This document shows positions 125 to 8,339 of a stretch of DNA of 8,813 nucleotides, in pieces. Every line of letters begins with the position of its first letter. Positions within the stretch are counted from its first letter, which is position 1. Made by a program: the position numbers and the translations under genes. Under the pieces are notes generated by a model. It worked only from the letters and a program-made list of their open reading frames with translations, ran no database searches and was not told the origin of the DNA. The DNA is from a bacterium (lineage in GTDB: Bacteria > UBA9089 > CG2-30-40-21 > SBAY01): the NCBI GenBank assembly GCA_040757115.1, contig JBFLYA010000155.1, positions 1 through 8,813 on the forward strand, read 5' to 3'.

Positions 125-314
125 AAAGTCTGATGATTTTTTTTGCAACTTATCCTTTGAAGTTGAGTTGATAAAAAATGCTTTACCTATTTTCTTCCCT
201 TTGTGTCCTTTGCGATTTATCCTTTTTTAATCGCAAAGAACGCAAAAGAAATCCACCGCAAAGAACGCAAAGATTAAAGACAAAAGGAATCATAAAAAAT
301 TCACGAAACACCAG
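125..314 (+). repeat. Left arm of long inverted repeat flanking the DUF488 operon
   Basis: This 190-bp arm is the reverse complement of 2494-2657. By eye the arms differ at only two substitutions, one base in a T-run (8 T against 7), and a 25-bp extra block here. The extra block is a tandem duplication: CGCAAAGAACGCAAA begins at 232 and again at 257. A perfect 10-bp hairpin (208-217 with 229-238, 11-nt loop) lies inside. No target duplication is evident at the outer ends, and the arm itself has no obvious terminal inverted repeats. It could be the end of a cassette or one of two copies of a dispersed repeat inserted in opposite orientation. Confidence 0.9.
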
Positions 315-347: not shown

Positions 348-476
348 TTACTCCTTGAGCAACTCCTCTTGACATAACATGATAAACTGCATCTTCTTAT
401 TGTACTCTCCATTATCTGACCATAACATATAATCAAAGTTTGACCCCAATCCCCTCTGAAATATTAGAGTTGTGAG
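348..476 (-). pseudogene. Open frame fragment downstream of the dual-OB gene
   Basis: On the minus strand, in a different frame from the 464-1186 gene, an uninterrupted frame runs from a TGA at about 477-479 to a TAA at 348-350. Its tail reads SNFDYMLWSDNGEYNKK followed by MQFIMLCQEELLKE, which has the composition of real protein (acidic/aromatic and amphipathic stretches, normal codon mix) rather than of the surrounding repeats. The only ATG that opens it is at 428, giving 26 residues; a TTG at 449 would give 33. I do not recognise the family. It is most easily read as the 3' remnant of a fourth operon gene whose 5' part was lost, or as a very small gene. Confidence 0.35.
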
Positions 477-1186
477 AAGTCAATTTCTGCTTTATATTCA
501 GGAATGGTATGGACACCAATTATCATCAGCCAATTTTCACCCTGATATAACCGCGTTAAACCTAAACTAAAGAATATATTGGCATATCCTTTCTTTAAAA
601 AATCCTCAAGACTAAGAGAATGTGAGGACTTTTTAAGATATTGTAAAACATATCTACCAAAGGCACGCAGTTTAATATCCGGGCACGGCTTTTCTTTCCA
701 CCTCTCTTTCCCTAATGTAAAATTTATCCGAACAGCAATATCATCACCTTTTTTATTTGGTTTAAAATGAATTAAAAAGTCATCTGGCTTGATCAATCCT
801 AAGGAACATTCTTTAGCCTGAAGTCTATTTAAATCCTCTTGATGAGAATGGGTATTAAGGAAATCAATCTTTTCTTTATCGTTAAGTTGTCTAACTAATC
901 TGGGTTTAAATCGCCTATCAATAATCCAATCCTCAATATGAGGCGGGGAAGGGTTTGGTTCTTTAAGAAAAACTTCAGATACAGCCAATAATTTTATCCG
1001 TGGCTCTCCTTGAATAATAAAATCTGTCAATTGGACACAATGTTCCATCGGGTCACTAATGTCTAATCGAACAGGCCGAATCCATTTGCCGGTGTTAGAC
1101 TCTATTCCTGCAGTACAAATTCCATTAGCCATTTTGGTCATAGCTAAGATAACTAATTCTTTAGATATAGTTTCTTTTGACATCAT
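464..1186 (-). CDS. Probable dual-OB-domain protein, DUF488 operon partner
   Basis: This 240-residue protein opens with a beta-rich segment (ELVILAMTKMANGICTAGIE, then TGKWIRPVRL) and ends with a second segment containing LGLTRLYQGENWLMIIGVHT and IPEY. This matches my recollection of the dual-OB (DuOB) family: an N-terminal CIAGID...GKWIRPV strand set and a C-terminal GLTRP...W...GI.T.PDY set. OB folds usually bind nucleic acid or nucleotides, and dual-OB proteins are found beside DUF488 genes; the molecular role is unknown. It is the last gene of the three-gene minus operon, 49 bp after its neighbour. No Shine-Dalgarno is visible before either ATG (1186 or 1183); a short heptamer array (1193-1213) occupies the place where one would be. 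No signal peptide or membrane segment is seen, so it is probably cytoplasmic. Confidence 0.7.
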   Translation of the reverse strand: MMSKETISKELVILAMTKMANGICTAGIESNTGKWIRPVRLDISDPMEHCVQLTDFIIQGEPRIKLLAVSEVFLKEPNPSPPHIEDWIIDRRFKPRLVRQLNDKEKIDFLNTHSHQEDLNRLQAKECSLGLIKPDDFLIHFKPNKKGDDIAVRINFTLGKERWKEKPCPDIKLRAFGRYVLQYLKKSSHSLSLEDFLKKGYANIFFSLGLTRLYQGENWLMIIGVHTIPEYKAEIDFSQL

Positions 1187-1192
1187 ATTTTA

Positions 1193-1216
1193 TAGTAGTT
1201 AGTAGTCAGTAGTTAG
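1193..1216. repeat. Short heptamer array (TAGTAGT units)
   Basis: Three 7-bp units (TAGTAGT, TAGTAGT, CAGTAGT) followed by TAG fill most of the 49-bp gap between the two operon genes. The array lies directly upstream of the dual-OB start and may have displaced its ribosome binding site. Confidence 0.6.
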
Positions 1217-1235
1217 CAATATTCTCTCTACTTTC

Positions 1236-1679
1236 TTACAGGTGATAAACTTCAATATCTGGTAAATTTTTAGCCCAAAATTCTGCTATTAATCGACGAT
1301 GACATTTATCCACAGTCGGCTCGGTGCAAAGCAGGCAAATAGTCTGGTTTTTCATCAGTTCTTTCCCTAATTTTAGAATACTAACTTTATTTTTCTCAAG
1401 TGATTTCAGGAAATCATTCTCATATCTATTCCAATTATTGTCCTTTTTATATTGGTTAAGTATATCTTCAATGGGAGCAAGTTGTAGTTCATGGCGATAG
1501 TTAATACCAAAGCCGGCATTAAGTAAAAACTCCAAATCCTTCCCTTTGGAATAACCTGCTAATTGGGAAGTATTATTTAATCGAATATCCACTACTAAGG
1601 TTATTCTTGCCTTCTGCAGCAATTTTATAAATGTCTCTAAACTCTTCCTGGTAAATCCAATGGTGTATATTTTATGCAT
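1236..1679 (-). CDS. DUF488 family protein (middle gene of operon)
   Basis: The 147-residue product has the DUF488 layout: N-terminal KIYTIGFTRKSLETFIKLL, a VVDIR strand-end, and the C-terminal signature ICLLCTEPTVDKCHRRLI (Cys118, Glu120, Cys126-His127-Arg128). In typical members these read IGHS, DVR and CAE.P..CHR; here IGHS is IGFT and CAE is CTE, a divergent paralogue of its neighbour. Biochemical function is unknown. I place the start at 1679 rather than the longer ATG at 1718, because the first 11 codons of the longer form lie inside an inserted mobile element or its duplicated target. GGAG (1686-1689) is spaced 6 nt from the 1679 ATG, and family members begin with this M.KIYTIG. The gene was originally about 21 bp from the upstream DUF488 gene; a 266-bp insertion now separates them. 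Confidence 0.88.
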   Translation of the reverse strand: MHKIYTIGFTRKSLETFIKLLQKARITLVVDIRLNNTSQLAGYSKGKDLEFLLNAGFGINYRHELQLAPIEDILNQYKKDNNWNRYENDFLKSLEKNKVSILKLGKELMKNQTICLLCTEPTVDKCHRRLIAEFWAKNLPDIEVYHL

Positions 1680-1685
1680 TTTCAT

Positions 1686-1689
1686 CTCC
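1686..1689 (-). promoter_or_regulatory. Ribosome binding site formed by a target-site duplication
   Basis: GGAG on the minus strand lies 6 nt before the ATG at 1679. It is inside, or at the edge of, the 8-bp direct repeat (TCCAAACT, 1687-1694) made when the 1695-1960 element inserted, so the insertion kept the Shine-Dalgarno next to its gene. Confidence 0.75.
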
Positions 1690-1694
1690 AAACT

Positions 1695-1960
1695 GTAACC
1701 GTTCAGGTGATAATTCACCGCAGAGACGCAAGAGTTCGCAGAGAAGACATAGAAATAAATTAGATAACATAAAAGATTATTGATGCAGACATGGAAATAC
1801 TTATGACCTGCTTGCCCAATGTTCAGCAGGCAAACCAGATTTGTTAATCAATTTTAATGTTATTGTACTCAAGAGCTTGCCCTGATGAAAATCAGGGATG
1901 TTAAGCGTCTCGTCAATAGATTTTAATTTTTTTCTCTGTGTCTCTGCGGTGAACAGTTAC
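1695..1960 (-). mobile_element. MITE-like element, copy A, IS66-type ends
   Basis: This 266-bp non-coding element starts GTAACCGTTCAGGTGA and ends GGTGAACAGTTAC; the outermost 11 bp are inverted repeats with one mismatch. It is flanked by perfect direct repeats TCCAAACT at 1687-1694 and 1961-1968. IS66-family elements are known for GTAA ends and 8-bp target duplications, so mobilisation by an IS66-type transposase in trans is the inference; no transposase is present here. Each end carries a sub-terminal CACCGCAGAGAC motif, but one end has an extra 12 bp (AGGTGATAATTC). A 7-bp hairpin with a GAAA loop lies at 1880-1897, and CCTGCT/AGCAGG can pair around 1810. The reverse complement aligns along its length with copy B at 3188-3441. 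Confidence 0.88.
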
Positions 1961-1974
1961 TCCAAACTAAACAC

Positions 1975-2472
1975 TTACTCAAAAAGCGATAATTGTTGCA
2001 CTTCATTTTTAAACTCTTCTAATTTTGGGTAGTCCAGGGTCCCATCCGCCAGGATATGAATTACATCTATCTCTTTTTCTAATAAAGATTTTGTAATCAG
2101 GAGATGGCGATGGCATTGTCTTGGGTCTGCTTCAGCACACATAATAGCGGCTCTTTTACCCACCGTTTCCTCAACTAAAAATTGTAAGGTGTTAAGATAT
2201 TCTTCACTTTGAGCATATTTTTTATAATCTGTTTTCCCAGTGGCAGTGATATATTCTGAATTAGAAGGATACCCCCCCAATCCTTTCCCTAAGTATAGGT
2301 ATTCCATATTATTTTTCTCAATGATTGGTGCTAATTCATTTTTATTAAACCAGGTGGCATATTTACAATAAGGGGAGGTTCGGACATCAACCAATATTTG
2401 AATTTGATGGAGTTGTAATAATTTAATAAAGTTTTCTAATGAATGATTACTATGTCCGATTGAAAAAATCAT
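1975..2472 (-). CDS. DUF488 family protein (first gene of operon)
   Basis: The 165-residue product is a canonical DUF488 protein: MIFSIGHSNHSLENFIKLLQ at the N terminus, ILVDVRTSPYCKY with the DVR motif, YLYLGKGLGGYP in the middle, and AAIMCAEADPRQCHRHLL near the C terminus (Cys112, Glu114, Cys120-His121-Arg122). Function is not established; conserved Cys, His and Arg residues suggest a small catalytic or metal/nucleotide-binding domain, which is inference. I choose the ATG at 2472 over 2487: a GAGGT is spaced about 8-9 nt upstream of 2472, nothing comparable precedes 2487, and family members start at MIFSIG. The right arm of the long inverted repeat ends only 21 bp upstream, so the arm forms most of the 5' untranslated region. 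Co-transcribed with the second DUF488 gene and the dual-OB gene. Confidence 0.92.
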   Translation of the reverse strand: MIFSIGHSNHSLENFIKLLQLHQIQILVDVRTSPYCKYATWFNKNELAPIIEKNNMEYLYLGKGLGGYPSNSEYITATGKTDYKKYAQSEEYLNTLQFLVEETVGKRAAIMCAEADPRQCHRHLLITKSLLEKEIDVIHILADGTLDYPKLEEFKNEVQQLSLFE

Positions 2473-2493
2473 TAAATGAAACCTCATTTAAAT

Positions 2494-2657
2494 CTGGTGT
2501 TTCGTGAATTTTTTATGATTCCTTTTGCCTTTAATCTTTGTGTTCTTTGCGATTAAAAAAGGATAAATCGCAAAGGACACAAAGGGAAGAAAATAGGTAA
2601 AGCATTTTTTATCAACTCAACTTCAAAGGATAAGTTGCAAAAAAATCATCAGACTTT
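2494..2657 (-). repeat. Right arm of long inverted repeat flanking the DUF488 operon
   Basis: This 164-bp arm is the near-perfect reverse complement of 125-314 (two substitutions, a 1-base T-run difference, and absence of the 25-bp tandem duplication). It lies between the operon promoter (2757-2785) and the first gene, so it should be transcribed as 5' leader. The left arm would form the complementary 3' end of the same RNA if transcription continues past the last gene. Confidence 0.9.
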
Positions 2658-2756
2658 TGAGCCTAATTTTGCCATCTTTGAGCAAAATAAACAGATTGAT
2701 AAGGATAAAGAGAAGTTTAGAAATAGCATAAAATTTACGAAAATCCAGTTAATATA

Positions 2757-2785
2757 AAGATATCATAAAAAAATTTATATGTCAA
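2757..2785 (-). promoter_or_regulatory. Sigma-70-type promoter for the DUF488 operon
   Basis: On the minus strand TTGACA (2780-2785) and TATCTT (2757-2762) are separated by 17 bp in an AT-rich context. The -35 is a full consensus match and the -10 matches 4 of 6. Transcription would start near 2750 and pass through the right inverted-repeat arm before the first DUF488 gene. Confidence 0.65.
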
Positions 2786-2805
2786 GAAAAAAAACTTTAG
2801 GTATC

Positions 2806-3112
2806 TGTAATTCAGACACTGGACATCAGACATAAGACTATAGACTCTATTTATGGAGGAAATTAGTGACATTTGGGAAACCATCCTCAAAACTTCACTC
2901 CCTGAATTTTTCCTAAGCCTTACCTATGTCAGTGACAGTGTCAGTGTCAGTGAAGAAACTTCTTCAACTCATCCAACACTTTCAACTCTTTCTACTCTTT
3001 CAACTCTTCCAGCAGAAGAAGTATAGGCAGGTCTCCTAATCCTTCATTCTTCTGCAATTTCTGCCTGCTTTAGTCTGAGGTCTGATGTCTATAGTCTATT
3101 GTCTGAATCACA
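2806..3112. repeat. Element bounded by inverted heptamer arrays (CAGACAT units)
   Basis: Left arm 2813-2847 contains five 7-bp units (CAGACAC, TGGACAT, CAGACAT, AAGACTA, TAGACTC). Right arm 3071-3105 contains five units of the complementary type (TAGTCTG, AGGTCTG, ATGTCTA, TAGTCTA, TTGTCTG). The arms are imperfect inverted repeats, with outer TGTAATTCAGAC matched by GTCTGAATCACA. The 223 bp between them hold a small open frame (2853-3026) and further short tandem repeats, a 6-bp CAGTGA/CAGTGT type near 2930-2956 and a 9-bp TTTCAACTC type near 2980-3008. Confidence 0.7.
2853..3026 (+). CDS. Possible small protein inside the heptamer-bounded element
   Basis: A 57-codon frame opens with MEEISDIWETILKTSLPEFF, which has an amphipathic, protein-like pattern. 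It then runs into a Ser/Thr-rich tail made by the in-frame 6-bp and 9-bp tandem repeats (SDSVSVSEE, STLSTLSTL), ending PAEEV. No Shine-Dalgarno or promoter is seen before the ATG, and I do not recognise the family. It may be a decayed coding fragment carried by the element, or chance. Confidence 0.25.
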   Translation: MEEISDIWETILKTSLPEFFLSLTYVSDSVSVSEETSSTHPTLSTLSTLSTLPAEEV

Positions 3113-3187
3113 GGATTGATAGGGGTGCAGGTAATAAATATGGGTAACTTTTTTTACCACAAAGGCATAAAGACACAAAGTTTTTCG

Positions 3188-3441
3188 GTAGCCGTTCACC
3201 GCAGGGATACAGAGACGCAGAGAAAAAATTAAAAACTATTTACCAGACGCAGAATTCCATCACGGATTTTCATCAGTGCAAGCTTTTGAGGACCGACATA
3301 TCATGATTGATTAACAAATTTGGTTTTGATGTCCTATGTATTACAAAGATTACCTCAATAATCTTTTCTGTTATCTGATTTATTTCCATGTTTTCTCTGT
3401 TCCTCTGCGTCTCTGCGGTAAATTACCACCTGAACGGTTAC
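3188..3441 (+). mobile_element. MITE-like element, copy B, IS66-type ends
   Basis: This 254-bp element starts GTAGCCGTTCACCGCAG and ends CACCTGAACGGTTAC. Its flanks are GTTTTTCG (3180-3187) and GTTTTTTG (3442-3449), an 8-bp direct repeat with one mismatch. It aligns along its length with the reverse complement of copy A, with substitutions and small indels. Shared landmarks include the CACCGCAG sub-terminal motif, GATTGATTAACAAAT in the middle and ATCTTTTNTGTTATCT towards the end. The open frame at 3336-3551 that reads through its right end is a by-product of the repeat, not a gene. Confidence 0.85.
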
Positions 3442-3835
3442 GTTTTTTGGTAATTGTTCAAAGACGAAGATTAGAACTTAACTCCTTTGCGATTTGTGTT
3501 CCTTTGCATCCTGACGAGAGGTCTTTTTATGAGGACTATAACGAAGTATAACTTCAATAAAGGCAATTCTGATTTTATCTAAGAGTGTTGTAGATAAGGG
3601 AGAGGAACAACAAGAAGGATGTAATTCTTTTTATAAAAAGTAAAGTAAAATATTAAAAGGTAAAACAAATATAAAAATATACAACACGCAAATTTTCGAC
3701 CTGTGCAGGTAGAAAATTAAGGAAGATGTTCTGGGGCTTGTACTTGTTTAGCGTGTTCTGAATGACGCTAATTTAAGGCGTAACTCTTTGGTAAATAATA
3801 GCATACCGATGTAAAATATAGCACTTATTAATTGG
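3442..3835. other. Gene-free stretch with small hairpins and an extra IS66-like end
   Basis: No gene is supported here. Immediately after copy B's duplicated target, GTAATTGTTCA at 3450-3460 resembles the element end GTAACCGTTCA (9 of 11); its exact reverse complement occurs at 4035-4045. A hairpin at 3691-3718 pairs AATTTTC with GAAAATT around an inner ACCT/AGGT stem, and TAGCGT (3749-3754) pairs with ACGCTA (3765-3770). Neither is followed by a T-tract. Confidence 0.45.
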
Positions 3836-3843
3836 AATTTGAC

Positions 3844-4134
3844 GTAACCGTTCAGGTCTTGAGTTACTAATATTGATTGAGATTTCGGAACACTTACAAA
3901 ATATTGAATGTAGAATGTAGAATATCGAATGTAGAATGTTCAAAGTATAAAAACGGCCAAACAGAAAAATCCAGAAACTTCATCATTCTACATTCAGTAT
4001 TCTACATTCGATATTCAATATTATTTCTGTTACCTGAACAATTACAGAAAAAGAATTATATGCCATCAAAACATGAAGGTTGAAACCTTGTTTTTAATTT
4101 GATTTTCTTAGTGTCTTTGTGGCTGAACGGTTAC
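3844..4134. mobile_element. MITE-like element, copy C, IS66-type ends with a different core
   Basis: This 291-bp element has a perfect 12-bp terminal inverted repeat (GTAACCGTTCAG, CTGAACGGTTAC) and a perfect 8-bp target duplication AATTTGAC (3836-3843 and 4135-4142). Its core is unrelated to copies A and B. It contains an inverted pair of GAATGTA heptamer arrays (3899-4022), an internal end-like sequence ACCTGAACAATTAC (4032-4045), a small AAGGT-TGAA-ACCTT hairpin followed by TTTTT (4076-4095), and a sub-terminal GTGTCTTTGTGGC motif. No coding capacity is seen; the 3877-4083 open frame only translates the repeats. Confidence 0.88.
3899..4022. repeat. Inverted heptamer arrays (GAATGTA units) inside copy C
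   Basis: The left arm (3899-3938) is built of GAATGTA, GAATGTA, GAATATC, GAATGTA, GAATG. The right arm (3984-4022) is the imperfect reverse complement of about 40 bp. The 45-bp spacer shows no gene. The transcript would fold into a long stem. Confidence 0.75.
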
Positions 4135-4156
4135 AATTTGACATAGATATGACTAT

Positions 4157-4291
4157 GAAATTCCAAATCACAAATTCCAAATTCCAAATAAATTCAAATA
4201 ACCAAAATTCAAAACATTACTCCCATAGTTTGTATTTAGGACTTGAAATTTGGTGTTTATTTGAAATTTGGTGCTTGGGATTTGGGATTTT
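4157..4291. repeat. Inverted heptamer arrays (CAAATTC units)
   Basis: The left arm has contiguous 7-bp units GAAATTC, CAAATCA, CAAATTC, CAAATTC, CAAATAA (4157-4191). The right arm (about 4241-4291) carries complementary GAAATTTG/GGGATTTG-type units. The 4119-4313 open frame is a translation of these repeats and is not listed as a gene. Confidence 0.7.
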
Positions 4292-4355
4292 TTTACTTAT
4301 CCACTCTGAGTAAAGTTTTGACTAATAACTGCTATATTCCATGAAGAGCTTAATG

Positions 4356-5470: not shown

Positions 5471-6814
5471 ATGAAATATCCTGATAATGAAAAAGGGGAA
5501 GTAATTTTATTATTGGTTGTTTTCATTAGTGTAGTTCTTTTTATGTTAGTTTTCTCTTTTTATTTATTATCTAAAGTAGGGTATAGTAATGCGGTTTTAG
5601 AGGAAGGTTATTGCGTGGCACTGCCATTAGCCGAGGCTGGGGCAGAAAGGGCTATGTGGCACTTAACTCAAACTCCATCCTGGCGAGCAGGCTATGGCAA
5701 TCCTCATGGAGCAGGTGAGCCTTTTTATTACCCAAATTCTACTTATGAAATAGGGCAGTATTGGGTGACTCTTTCTACTGTTTTACAGACAGTAGATTAT
5801 AGCATTGTGCGGATTACCAGCCGGGCACAGGTTAAAGGTCCTAAATTATTTGGTGTAGGGGTAGGTTTTGGGGCAACTAAAATGATAGAGGAAGTAGTAA
5901 AAGTAGTTTTTACTGTTAAGCCTGTCGGGGCGCGATATGCAATTATGACAGGTGGGAAACTAAATCTTAATGCCAACTCTATTATCTATGGAAGTATTCG
6001 GGCAAATGATACAATCCAGATTGATGCAAAAACAGATATTTATCCTGACCCTTTCTATCGTGAAGGCCGTGTTTTGACCAGTAAAAATATTGGAGTTAAG
6101 GCAAACCTGTTTCTTCATGATACATCTAATGATTTGCAGGATGTAAGAGCAAAGGGAACTATTACTGATAAGTCTAAAATAAGTGGAACCGCTGATGGTA
6201 TTTTTGAGTATGATACAACTTCAGATACAGATGGGTTGATTAATGATGGTAGTATTAAGCCGGGTGAATCAGGAACTTACATTCCTAATCCGAATATGAA
6301 TGAGATTATGGCGGCAGTTACGCAGGTTCATACTGAAACCAAACTTCAAAATTTTGACCTCGCCGGTGGGGTGCATCTTTTCCTTAATGGGATTGAGTTT
6401 ACACCAGGAAAAATTTCTGGTAAAGGAACAATTATTGTTATTAATAACAAAGATGTAGTCTTTTCTACGCCAGTGGGAAAGGAAGGTGAGCCAGTTGAAA
6501 TGAATATCATTGTTATCAGTGGAACAGATGGGGTAATTGGCACAGGTGATATTTATTTTAATCAAAGTTCACATCTGAAAGGGTTGATTTATTGTCATGA
6601 TAGTATCTATGCTCAGGCTAATTTTTCAGTTACGGGCTCGGTGATAAGTTATGATGGAGAATTGATATTACCTAAGGCACAGTCGGAATATACGCTAAAT
6701 CCATTTATGCCAGTTACTCCACCTGGATTTAGTAATTGGTGGGATCCAACGGGCAATGTCGTCGGTAGTGGTGGTAGTCCGGTTACAGTTCTCTCATGGA
6801 GGGAATTATTATAA
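5471..6814 (+). CDS. PilX-like minor prepilin with long beta-rich passenger region
   Basis: The 447-residue protein begins MKYPDNEKG, a prepilin leader ending in the peptidase glycine (Gly9), followed by a hydrophobic helix (about residues 11-33). AEAGAERAMWHLTQTPSW (about 54-71) is typical of the PilX N-terminal region. Glu at mature position 5 is absent, as in PilX and GspK proteins, which sit at the pilus or pseudopilus tip. From about residue 155 the protein is beta-rich, with Asn/Ser/Gly-rich turns (LNLNANSIIYGSIRANDTIQ, then LHDTSNDL, GTGDIYFNQSSHLKGLIYCH) reminiscent of stacked-strand or bactofilin-like surface domains. It would be inserted in the inner membrane and processed by a prepilin peptidase. 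GGGG (5461-5464) precedes the ATG. It is the first gene of a three-gene prepilin cluster; adhesion or tip function is inferred. Confidence 0.85.
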   Translation: MKYPDNEKGEVILLLVVFISVVLFMLVFSFYLLSKVGYSNAVLEEGYCVALPLAEAGAERAMWHLTQTPSWRAGYGNPHGAGEPFYYPNSTYEIGQYWVTLSTVLQTVDYSIVRITSRAQVKGPKLFGVGVGFGATKMIEEVVKVVFTVKPVGARYAIMTGGKLNLNANSIIYGSIRANDTIQIDAKTDIYPDPFYREGRVLTSKNIGVKANLFLHDTSNDLQDVRAKGTITDKSKISGTADGIFEYDTTSDTDGLINDGSIKPGESGTYIPNPNMNEIMAAVTQVHTETKLQNFDLAGGVHLFLNGIEFTPGKISGKGTIIVINNKDVVFSTPVGKEGEPVEMNIIVISGTDGVIGTGDIYFNQSSHLKGLIYCHDSIYAQANFSVTGSVISYDGELILPKAQSEYTLNPFMPVTPPGFSNWWDPTGNVVGSGGSPVTVLSWRELL

Positions 6815-6832
6815 TGTGTTTAAGCAATGGTT

Positions 6833-6865
6833 ATGTCCTCGGGGAGTGGACGCAAAGGGGAATGA
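6833..6865 (+). promoter_or_regulatory. Leader micro-ORF MSSGSGRKGE before the second prepilin
   Basis: ATG at 6833 opens ten codons encoding MSSGSGRKGE, and its TGA (6863-6865) overlaps an in-frame ATG (6862) of the next gene in an ATGA arrangement. The same motif recurs at 8673-8708 (MSTGSGHKVLW): 24 of 29 bases agree between the two sites. GTCC and GGAC can form a small stem within it. It may be a translational-coupling leader, an RNA element or a dispersed repeat. Confidence 0.35.
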
Positions 6866-6867
6866 AA

Positions 6868-7422
6868 ATGTATTTAAGGAGTGATACTGGTGGGAATGCT
6901 GAAGTCGAGGCAGCGCAGGCTCGGGGCACCCATGCAGAGCATGGGTCGTGTGGCTACCAGCCTTCCCGAGTCCCGAACCCCGAGTCCCGAGTCCCTATTT
7001 TCAGGGAAAATGAAAAAGGAATAGGTTTGATAGAAATTCTCTTGATGGTAGTTGTTTTAGTTTTTATTGTCATGGTGGTGATGATGGTGCTTTATACGGG
7101 CTCAAAGAAGGTAGTCAGCACAGGGAATTCGACTATCGCGGTTAAATTATGTCAAGAAACCATTGAGATAATCAGAAAGATGGAGACCAAAGGTATTCCT
7201 GAAGGAACTTTTCCTCCAGATACTTCTTTATTGTTTCCTCAAGGAACCTATGGCCCAGTAACCGTAGGTAAAGAAAATGGAACAAGAACAATCTCGGTGA
7301 GGAAAATTATCGACCCGGAATCTACCGGAACAAATACAGGTTATCTCGAAATAATCACAAGTGTTACCTGGCAGGAAGATGAAAGGATAAGAAGTCGATT
7401 GTTAGCTACCTATAAGAAGTAG
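6868..7422 (+). CDS. Type IV prepilin / pseudopilin-like protein with an unusually long leader
   Basis: The prepilin signature ENEKG followed by IGLIEILLMVVVLVFIVMVV places the peptidase glycine at residue 51 and Glu at mature position 5 (residue 56), followed by about 20 hydrophobic residues. The C-terminal part is a compact globular domain (TISVRKIIDPESTGTNTGY, then SVTWQEDERIRSRLLATY), as in PilV-type minor pilins. I put the start at ATG 6868 (AGGGG at 6856-6860, 7 nt spacing); 6862 is also possible, and the 6796 start that overlaps the preceding gene is unlikely. A usual leader is far shorter than 50 residues. Here about 40 residues come from a GC-rich, structured, repeat-bearing segment (about 6880-6996) that looks inserted. 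The NEKG cleavage context matches the preceding gene, so the frame is genuine. Confidence 0.8.
   Translation: MYLRSDTGGNAEVEAAQARGTHAEHGSCGYQPSRVPNPESRVPIFRENEKGIGLIEILLMVVVLVFIVMVVMMVLYTGSKKVVSTGNSTIAVKLCQETIEIIRKMETKGIPEGTFPPDTSLLFPQGTYGPVTVGKENGTRTISVRKIIDPESTGTNTGYLEIITSVTWQEDERIRSRLLATYKK
6885..6996 (+). repeat. GC-rich structured insert and heptamer array within the prepilin leader
   Basis: This segment is markedly more GC-rich than its surroundings. ACCCATGC pairs with GCATGGGT around a 3-nt AGA loop at about 6928-6946. The outer segments GGCTCGGG and CCCGAGTC can pair around it. At 6968-6995 there are four 7-bp units (GAGTCCC, GAACCCC, GAGTCCC, GAGTCCC). All of it is read in frame as RSDTGGNAEVEAAQARG and then SRVPNPESRVP. 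Confidence 0.65.
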
Positions 7423-7445
7423 ATAGCGAGAGACAGTAGTCAGGA

Positions 7446-7450
7446 GGAGG
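7446..7450 (+). promoter_or_regulatory. Strong Shine-Dalgarno before an apparent CTG start
   Basis: AGGAGGAGGTGA (7442-7453) is an excellent ribosome binding site. GGAGG at 7446-7450 lies 10 nt before the CTG at 7461, which is the only in-frame codon that gives a complete MKKG-type prepilin leader. A GTG at 7450 is too close and is out of frame. Confidence 0.6.
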
Positions 7451-7460
7451 TGAAAAAAGA

Positions 7461-8339
7461 CTGAAAAAAGGTTATACTTTGATAGAAACATTGGTTAGTC
7501 TTATAATCACAGGAATTGTTATCCTGGTAATTGTATTTTTCTTTAGTGGTGGAATAAAAGATTATATGCAGACAGTTAGAAAACCTCAGGTGAAAGCACA
7601 GGAGATTGTGAGGGAGACGATGAGTGGCAGGGTAGGAGATAAAAGAGGTGGAATGTTAAAAGAGATGCGGAATCTTATGGGACTATCTTTTGCCGATAGG
7701 CGAAATATTACTTTTGTCCTAAATTTTGGTGAAAGATATGCCGATATAAATAGTAATGGTAAATTTGAGAGTAATGAAGCAATTATTTTTGATGAGGATG
7801 GAAATTTTAGTTATGAGCAAGGCACAGATACAGTTAAAACAGGGAGTTCTCCACCGGAAGGAACACCACTTTTAAACTTCTATAATTTAGAAAAGCATTC
7901 AGATGAGGGTGAAAATAACTATAAATTTGATAGTGGTGAGACAGTTATCCGTGATTTAAACGATAATAATCAATATGATACAGGAGAGGAAGTTTTAGTA
8001 GGTGGTGTTCTGGCTAATGCAACTAAACTTGTACCATTTGGTAATACCATTACTTATGAGTTAGATATAGCCAATAAAGAGATAAATAGGCTTGAGAACG
8101 GAACACATACGGAGATAGTAGCTGATAATATATTAGTTGATGCCGTGAATAATTCCTTTGGCTTAGAATTTCGATATTTTGATACTAATGGGGCTGAACT
8201 TGCATATTTGCCGCTAAGTCTTAGTGATAAACAGGTAGTTTGCTTCATAGGAATAAGGATAGCTACAGATGTTGATGATGACCAAAAGAGTGATTTTGAA
8301 TTAAAGACCAGGGTTTTTCTGAGAAAGCTTATGAAGTAA
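7461..8339 (+). CDS. Prepilin-like protein with EF-hand-like acidic loops
   Basis: Read from CTG 7461, the 292-residue product begins (M)KKG followed by YTLIETLVSLIITGIVILVI: peptidase glycine at residue 4, Glu at mature +5, then a hydrophobic helix to about residue 28. It is a PilW/PulG-type minor pilin or pseudopilin. Three segments resemble calcium-binding loops: DINSNGKFESNE (95-106), DLNDNNQYDTGE (165-176) and DVDDDQKSDFEL (270-281), with Asp/Asn at loop positions 1, 3 and 5. Ca2+ binding is known for some pseudopilins and minor pilins but is inference here. A TTG start at 7479 would cut into the conserved signature and remove the cleavage glycine, so it is rejected. The gap to the preceding gene is 38 bp. 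Alternatively GTG 7450 plus a one-base shift in the A-run gives VKKRLKKG. Confidence 0.8.
   Translation: MKKGYTLIETLVSLIITGIVILVIVFFFSGGIKDYMQTVRKPQVKAQEIVRETMSGRVGDKRGGMLKEMRNLMGLSFADRRNITFVLNFGERYADINSNGKFESNEAIIFDEDGNFSYEQGTDTVKTGSSPPEGTPLLNFYNLEKHSDEGENNYKFDSGETVIRDLNDNNQYDTGEEVLVGGVLANATKLVPFGNTITYELDIANKEINRLENGTHTEIVADNILVDAVNNSFGLEFRYFDTNGAELAYLPLSLSDKQVVCFIGIRIATDVDDDQKSDFELKTRVFLRKLMK

What the first reader, a model, noticed from the sequence alone, without database searches (positions are those of the whole stretch)
1687..4142. Three IS66-type MITEs with 8-bp target duplications in 2.5 kb
Elements at 1695-1960, 3188-3441 and 3844-4134 share GTAACCGTTCA-type inverted ends and are bounded by TCCAAACT (perfect), GTTTTTCG/GTTTTTTG (7 of 8) and AATTTGAC (perfect). 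IS66-family insertion sequences are known for GTAA termini and 8-bp duplications. No transposase is present, so these are probably non-autonomous elements moved in trans. The common intergenic CTCTGCGTCTCTGCGG motif turns out to be their sub-terminal sequence, which would explain its dispersal.
Basis: partly seen in the sequence, partly recalled or inferred. Interest (0 to 1): 0.78.

Follow-up and report, generated by a model that had tools for sequence, protein, structure and literature searches.

The report
MITEs bearing IS66-family (ISBst12-type) ends
Three short DNA elements in this window belong to a population of several hundred gene-less jumping elements in one bacterial genome, each duplicating 8 bases of its target and carrying the ends of a known insertion-sequence family (IS66), so the finding is real and of a known kind, though unusually abundant.

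Summary
Elements 1695-1960, 3188-3441 and 3844-4134 have GTAACCGTTCA-type inverted ends and 8-bp flanking duplications (8/8, 7/8, 8/8). In the same 4.32-Mb draft genome the 11-mer occurs 1,019 times at <=1 mismatch, against 65 for the reversed pattern. In a 1.89-Mb sample, 47 of 112 end pairs carry a perfect 8-bp duplication (shuffles: mean 0.5, maximum 4); no other length stands out. Element 3 lies in another dispersed repeat whose empty copies hold a single AATTTGAC. The ends have an owner: the genome's only copy of one IS66 transposase (single-ORF ISBst12 type, two in-frame stops) lies in a 1,563-bp element with exactly these termini. Intact relatives in Omnitrophota, Planctomycetota and others share the termini, several with 8-bp duplications. 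The interiors fall into several unrelated families and match the IS only in the terminal ~11-16 bp. One 237-bp family is 99.6% identical and absent from three sites in a sibling genome, so movement was recent. The CTCTGCGTCTCTGCGG motif is sub-terminal in two families (63 of 70 exact copies), but also occurs in other repeats. Trans-mobilisation is inferred; no intact matching transposase was found in this assembly. Verdict: new member of a known kind.

The parts
1687..1694 (.). left 8-bp target duplication TCCAAACT of element 1
   Evidence: sequence
1695..1960 (+). element 1: 266-bp MITE of family A, ends GTAACCGTTCAGGT / GTAACTGTTCACCG, between two DUF488 genes
   Evidence: same insertion in sibling genome G001 with 264/265 identity
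1961..1968 (.). right 8-bp target duplication TCCAAACT of element 1
   Evidence: sequence
3180..3187 (.). left 8-bp target duplication GTTTTTCG of element 2
   Evidence: sequence
3188..3441 (-). element 2: 254-bp MITE of family A in the opposite orientation to element 1, ends GTAGCCGTTCACCG / GTAACCGTTCAGGT
3442..3449 (.). right target duplication GTTTTTTG (7 of 8) of element 2
   Evidence: sequence
3836..3843 (.). left 8-bp target duplication AATTTGAC of element 3
   Evidence: sequence; single copy in empty paralogous sites
3844..4134 (.). element 3: 291-bp MITE with both ends GTAACCGTTCAG and a long internal palindrome (3900-3943 / 3979-4022)
4135..4142 (.). right 8-bp target duplication AATTTGAC of element 3
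   Evidence: sequence

Best explanation
The three elements are MITEs: non-autonomous elements that carry the terminal inverted repeats of a single-ORF IS66-family (ISBst12-group) insertion sequence. A transposase of that group binds the ~11-16 bp ends in trans and inserts the element at an AT-rich target. Staggered cutting and repair duplicate 8 bp. Because only the ends are needed, several unrelated interiors have been multiplied by the same machinery. Shown: ends, 8-bp duplications, genome-wide copies, empty sites, an IS66 element with the same ends, recent presence/absence differences. Inferred: transposase binding, action in trans, and which transposase copy did it.
For: Copy number and ends. 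Duplication of exactly 8 bp. IS66 element L061:893-2455 in the same genome with GTAACCGTTCAGGTA at both ends and a PF03050 transposase. MITEs match it only in the terminal 11-16 bp. Relatives of its transposase with GTAACCGTTCA ends and 8-bp duplications (L244 AATTCTTT, L260 CTTCCGGG, L267 CCCGTTGC). A more distant one (31% identity) has GTAACCATTCAGGGGG ends and 8-bp duplications (GGATAATC, CATGATTC, AAGTAAAC, CCGTGACC, GTTGGTCG). Empty sites with a single target copy for element 3 and others. A 237-bp family at 99.6% median identity is absent from three orthologous sites of sibling genome G001. ISDge4 of the ISBst12 group, shown to transpose, has ends GTGACTACTCAGCA / GTAACTGCTCAGCA, one ORF and an 8-bp duplication (PMC12898284).
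Against: The only transposase found in this genome with exactly these ends has two in-frame stops and no flanking duplication. Genome G008 has 375 exact 12-mer ends and 8-bp duplications but no PF03050 match, and sibling G001 has only weak matches. About half the sampled pairs lack a duplication, including 13 of 21 copies of the near-identical family. Two of those show neighbouring DNA missing up to the element's end; the rest are unexplained. No movement was observed directly.
Confidence: 0.93

Rival explanations
1. Transposon-like elements, but owned by a transposase family other than IS66 that also makes 8-bp duplications (for example IS256 or IS6); the IS66 link would be a chance likeness of ends.
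For: G008 is full of these elements but shows no PF03050 match.
Against: The exact 11-mer bounds an IS66 transposase gene on both sides in the own genome, in G004 and in about a dozen relatives from other phyla. The published ISDge4 ends match the pattern.
Confidence: 0.04
2. Not mobile elements but structured intergenic repeats (RNA hairpins, REP-like or regulatory sites) whose inverted ends come from strand pairing and whose flank matches are accidental.
For: Elements 1 and 3 fold better than shuffles (z -5.5 and -6.2). Insertions avoid ORFs: 14 of 54 against 63% of random points.
Against: Duplications of exactly 8 bp far above shuffles, empty sites with one target copy, presence/absence in a sibling genome. 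No Rfam match.
Confidence: 0.02
3. The elements are extinct relics: all copies were spread by a transposase now dead in this lineage, and nothing moves today. (A variant of the best explanation rather than an exclusive alternative.)
For: Only a pseudogene with the exact ends is present. Family A copies have diverged (median 76% identity). Element 1 predates the split from G001.
Against: The 237-bp family is 99.6% identical and differs in presence from sibling G001. Other IS66 fragments sit at contig edges, as multi-copy elements lost in assembly would.
Confidence: 0.25

Closest known systems
ISBst12 group of the IS66 insertion-sequence family (e.g. ISDge4 of Deinococcus geothermalis, PMC12898284)
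   Same: GTAAC-type ends (GTAACTGCTCAGCA in ISDge4), 8-bp target duplication; the owner L061 has one transposase ORF with a PF03050 DDE domain.
   Different: The window elements carry no transposase and are 254-291 bp.
Bacterial MITEs, e.g. MITECca01 of Cardinium (PMC9769881) and MITEPsy1 of Pseudomonas syringae (PMC3189936)
   Same: Short, gene-less, multi-copy, with ends matching an IS; MITECca01 is also mostly intergenic, and MITEPsy1 makes a target duplication.
   Different: Those derive from other IS families (IS982; probably IS5). MITECca01 has 169 copies of one family, whereas here several unrelated interior families share one end sequence.

Membership tests
MITE | short, no transposase gene | tested here: met
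   254-291 bp; no transposase among the Pfam matches of the window's main ORFs
MITE | terminal inverted repeats matching an autonomous IS | tested here: met
   identical 11-mer at both ends of the IS66 element L061:893-2455
MITE | target-site duplication of the parent IS's length | tested here: met
   8 bp in the MITEs and in relatives of the IS
MITE | many dispersed copies with precise insertion | tested here: met
   1,019 ends; empty sites
MITE | mobilised in trans | not testable with these tools
   needs a transposition assay; the only matching transposase found is a pseudogene
IS66 family, ISBst12 group (owner L061) | IS66 DDE transposase domain | tested here: met
   PF03050 at E 1.9e-39 in the read-through search; D, D and E columns kept
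IS66 family, ISBst12 group (owner L061) | single transposase ORF, no tnpA/tnpB | tested here: met
   the 1,563-bp element is mostly filled by one ~473-codon frame; no separate tnpA/tnpB search was run
IS66 family, ISBst12 group (owner L061) | 8-bp duplication around the IS itself | tested here: not met
   L061 flanks TTATTTTT / AAAAACTT differ; relatives do show it, so L061 is probably an old or rearranged copy
IS66 family, ISBst12 group (window elements as full members) | encodes a transposase | tested here: not met
   none encoded; they are non-autonomous elements with IS66 ends, not IS66 elements

The most novel reading that the evidence does not exclude
One short end sequence recognised by ISBst12-group transposases has, in several families of one bacterial phylum, repeatedly captured unrelated interiors and driven hundreds of MITEs per genome, and some insertions come with loss of neighbouring DNA up to the element's end. 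MITE formation here would be recurrent end capture, not internal deletion of a parent IS.
Probability: 0.4. Interest if true: 0.55.

Novelty: new member of a known kind. Interest (0 to 1): 0.4.

Why it matters
The 11-mer hits alone suggest on the order of 475 elements; paired elements cover about 1.7% of the sampled sequence. In the papers I could search I found no MITE assigned to IS66. The case names the owner of a large intergenic repeat class in an uncultured lineage, largely explains the CTCTGCGTCTCTGCGG motif, and gives a concrete test of how little sequence an ISBst12-group transposase needs.

Tried and rejected
I looked for gene-carrying versions with these ends: no excess of duplications beyond 600 bp (one 859-bp pair). 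I tested whether duplication-free copies of the 237-bp family come from exchange of flanks between copies: no cross-matching flanks. Sibling G001 showed missing neighbouring DNA in two cases instead. Rfam found nothing. Searches for the 11-mer and the motif in papers gave nothing relevant. Han et al. 2001 on IS679 was not held.

Full report
What was checked. The window is contig C155 (8,813 bp) of a draft genome, G000, of 4.32 Mb in 462 contigs. Elements 1 and 2 are two copies of one family in opposite orientation (73% identity). Element 3 shares only the terminal bases and about 40 bp of its right side, and has its own long palindrome.

More than chance. The 11-mer GTAACCGTTCA (<=1 mismatch) occurs 508 times forward and 511 reverse, against 32 and 33 for the reversed pattern. 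I took 1.89 Mb of the genome and paired adjacent convergent ends. Of 112 pairs, 47 have identical flanking 8-mers; 500 reshufflings gave a mean of 0.48 and a maximum of 4. Testing 4 to 14 bp, only 8 stands out. A second scan that assumed only GTAA...TTAC and a 10-of-12 inverted match found 54 perfect 8-bp duplications against 1 in a one-base-shifted control. It also showed further end classes, GTAACTATTCA[C/G] and GTAATRCGTCA.

Insertion into a pre-existing site. Joining the flanks of element 3 and searching the same genome found 25 places where the sequence runs through the junction, the best at 94.6% over 129 bp (overlapping loci are partly counted twice). Most of those printed carry a single AATTTGAC. 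Element 3 therefore jumped into another dispersed repeat. At least four other elements have empty counterparts. Element 1 lies between two tandem DUF488 genes, just upstream of the second gene's start. Sibling genome G001 has the same insertion (264/265 identical). G002 (79% identity) lacks it at the orthologous place and has a different, shorter palindromic filler.

Whose ends. IS66 transposases (PF03050) were sought in the genome. The best hit lies in a 1,563-bp element, L061:893-2455 (contig C277), bounded on both sides by GTAACCGTTCAGGTA. It holds a single ~473-codon transposase frame with two stops in which the catalytic D, D and E columns are kept. It is the only such copy found and has no flanking duplication. 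MITEs match it only over the terminal 11-16 bp. Edge-of-contig fragments of other IS66 genes carry GTAACTATTCA (L065) and GTAACTGCTCA (L064) ends; the first of these also bounds MITEs. Outside the genome, relatives of this transposase in Omnitrophota, Planctomycetota, a gammaproteobacterium and others have GTAACCGTTCA(C/G) at both sides of the gene, three with perfect 8-bp duplications. In the single-contig genome G065 a 31%-identical relative has GTAACCATTCAGGGGG ends and perfect 8-bp duplications at five sites. The published ISDge4, assigned to the ISBst12 group of IS66 on its single ORF, has matching ends and an 8-bp duplication and was seen to transpose (PMC12898284). The owner is therefore an ISBst12-group IS66 element.

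Population structure. Clustering put the paired elements of the sample into several families with unrelated interiors, about 237-254 bp or 158 bp long. The families of G008, another family of the same phylum, are separate, although its ends are identical and 22 of 51 pairs have perfect 8-bp duplications. Exact 12-mer ends are counted in hundreds in G000, G001 and G008, in tens in G003, G005, G013 and G017, and near zero outside the phylum. Elements under 1 kb make up 32,646 of 1,886,853 sampled bases. After rejoining the target, 14 of 54 insertion points fall inside ORFs of >=100 codons, against 680 of 1,080 random points.

Recent activity and missing duplications. The 237-bp family has a median pairwise identity of 99.6%, yet 13 of 21 copies lack the duplication. 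In sibling G001 the copies corresponding to L092:13425, L112:15324 and L132:6440 are absent. At the two duplication-free sites, 158 bp (the left part of a family A MITE) and about 528 bp of DNA present in G001 are missing in G000, up to the end of the new element. Two cases do not settle whether this is part of transposition or later recombination between like ends.

The motif. Exact CCGCAGAGACGCAGAG lies 11 or 23-24 bp inside one of these ends in 63 of 70 places (263 of 322 at <=3 mismatches). The rest include another dispersed repeat with ends CACCTGTGCGATTA. Element 3 and several families lack the motif.

Verdict. Real, well explained, and a new member of a known kind: MITEs of the ISBst12 group of IS66, in unusually large numbers and with several unrelated interiors. 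Movement in trans remains inferred.

Noticed in passing
window 138-314 and 2494-2645: Two inverted copies (97-99% identical) of another dispersed repeat, carrying a TTTGCGTTCTTTGCGG-type motif, flank the DuOB-DUF488-DUF488 gene block.
   Followed up: no
window 464-2487 (minus strand): Gene block of a dual-OB domain protein (PF22557) and two DUF488 proteins; element 1 separates the two DUF488 genes, and its target duplication repeats the bases just upstream of the second gene's start.
   Followed up: partly
L084, L087, L100, L111, L115, L116, L117: Another repeat family with ends CACCTGTGCGATTAGACTAATTCATCGCAGAGACGC shares the CGCAGAGACGC motif without GTAAC ends.
   Followed up: no
window 3836-3843 and 4135-4300: Element 3 sits in a dispersed AAATTCCAAATCAC-type quasi-palindromic repeat present in about 20 other places in the sampled sequence.
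   Followed up: partly
L161:4223-4976: Nested MITEs: an element with GTAACTATTCAG ends (duplication CGTGGTTA) lies inside one with GTAACCATTCAG / GTAACCGTTCAG ends (duplication AAAATTAT).
   Followed up: yes
L112:15324-15560 and L132:6440-6676: Recent MITE copies without duplication where 158 bp and about 528 bp present in sibling G001 are missing up to the element's end.
   Followed up: partly
G000 contig C26, about 12563-14766: The flanks of a duplication-free 237-bp MITE copy occur three times in a row, as in a tandem array.
   Followed up: no
window 2780-2940: The inverted repeat ATCAGACATAAGACTATAGACT belongs to a further dispersed repeat (many copies).
   Followed up: no
window 5471-8339: Three adjacent plus-strand ORFs with hydrophobic N-terminal stretches (two of them pseudopilin-like by eye) have no Pfam match.
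   Followed up: no
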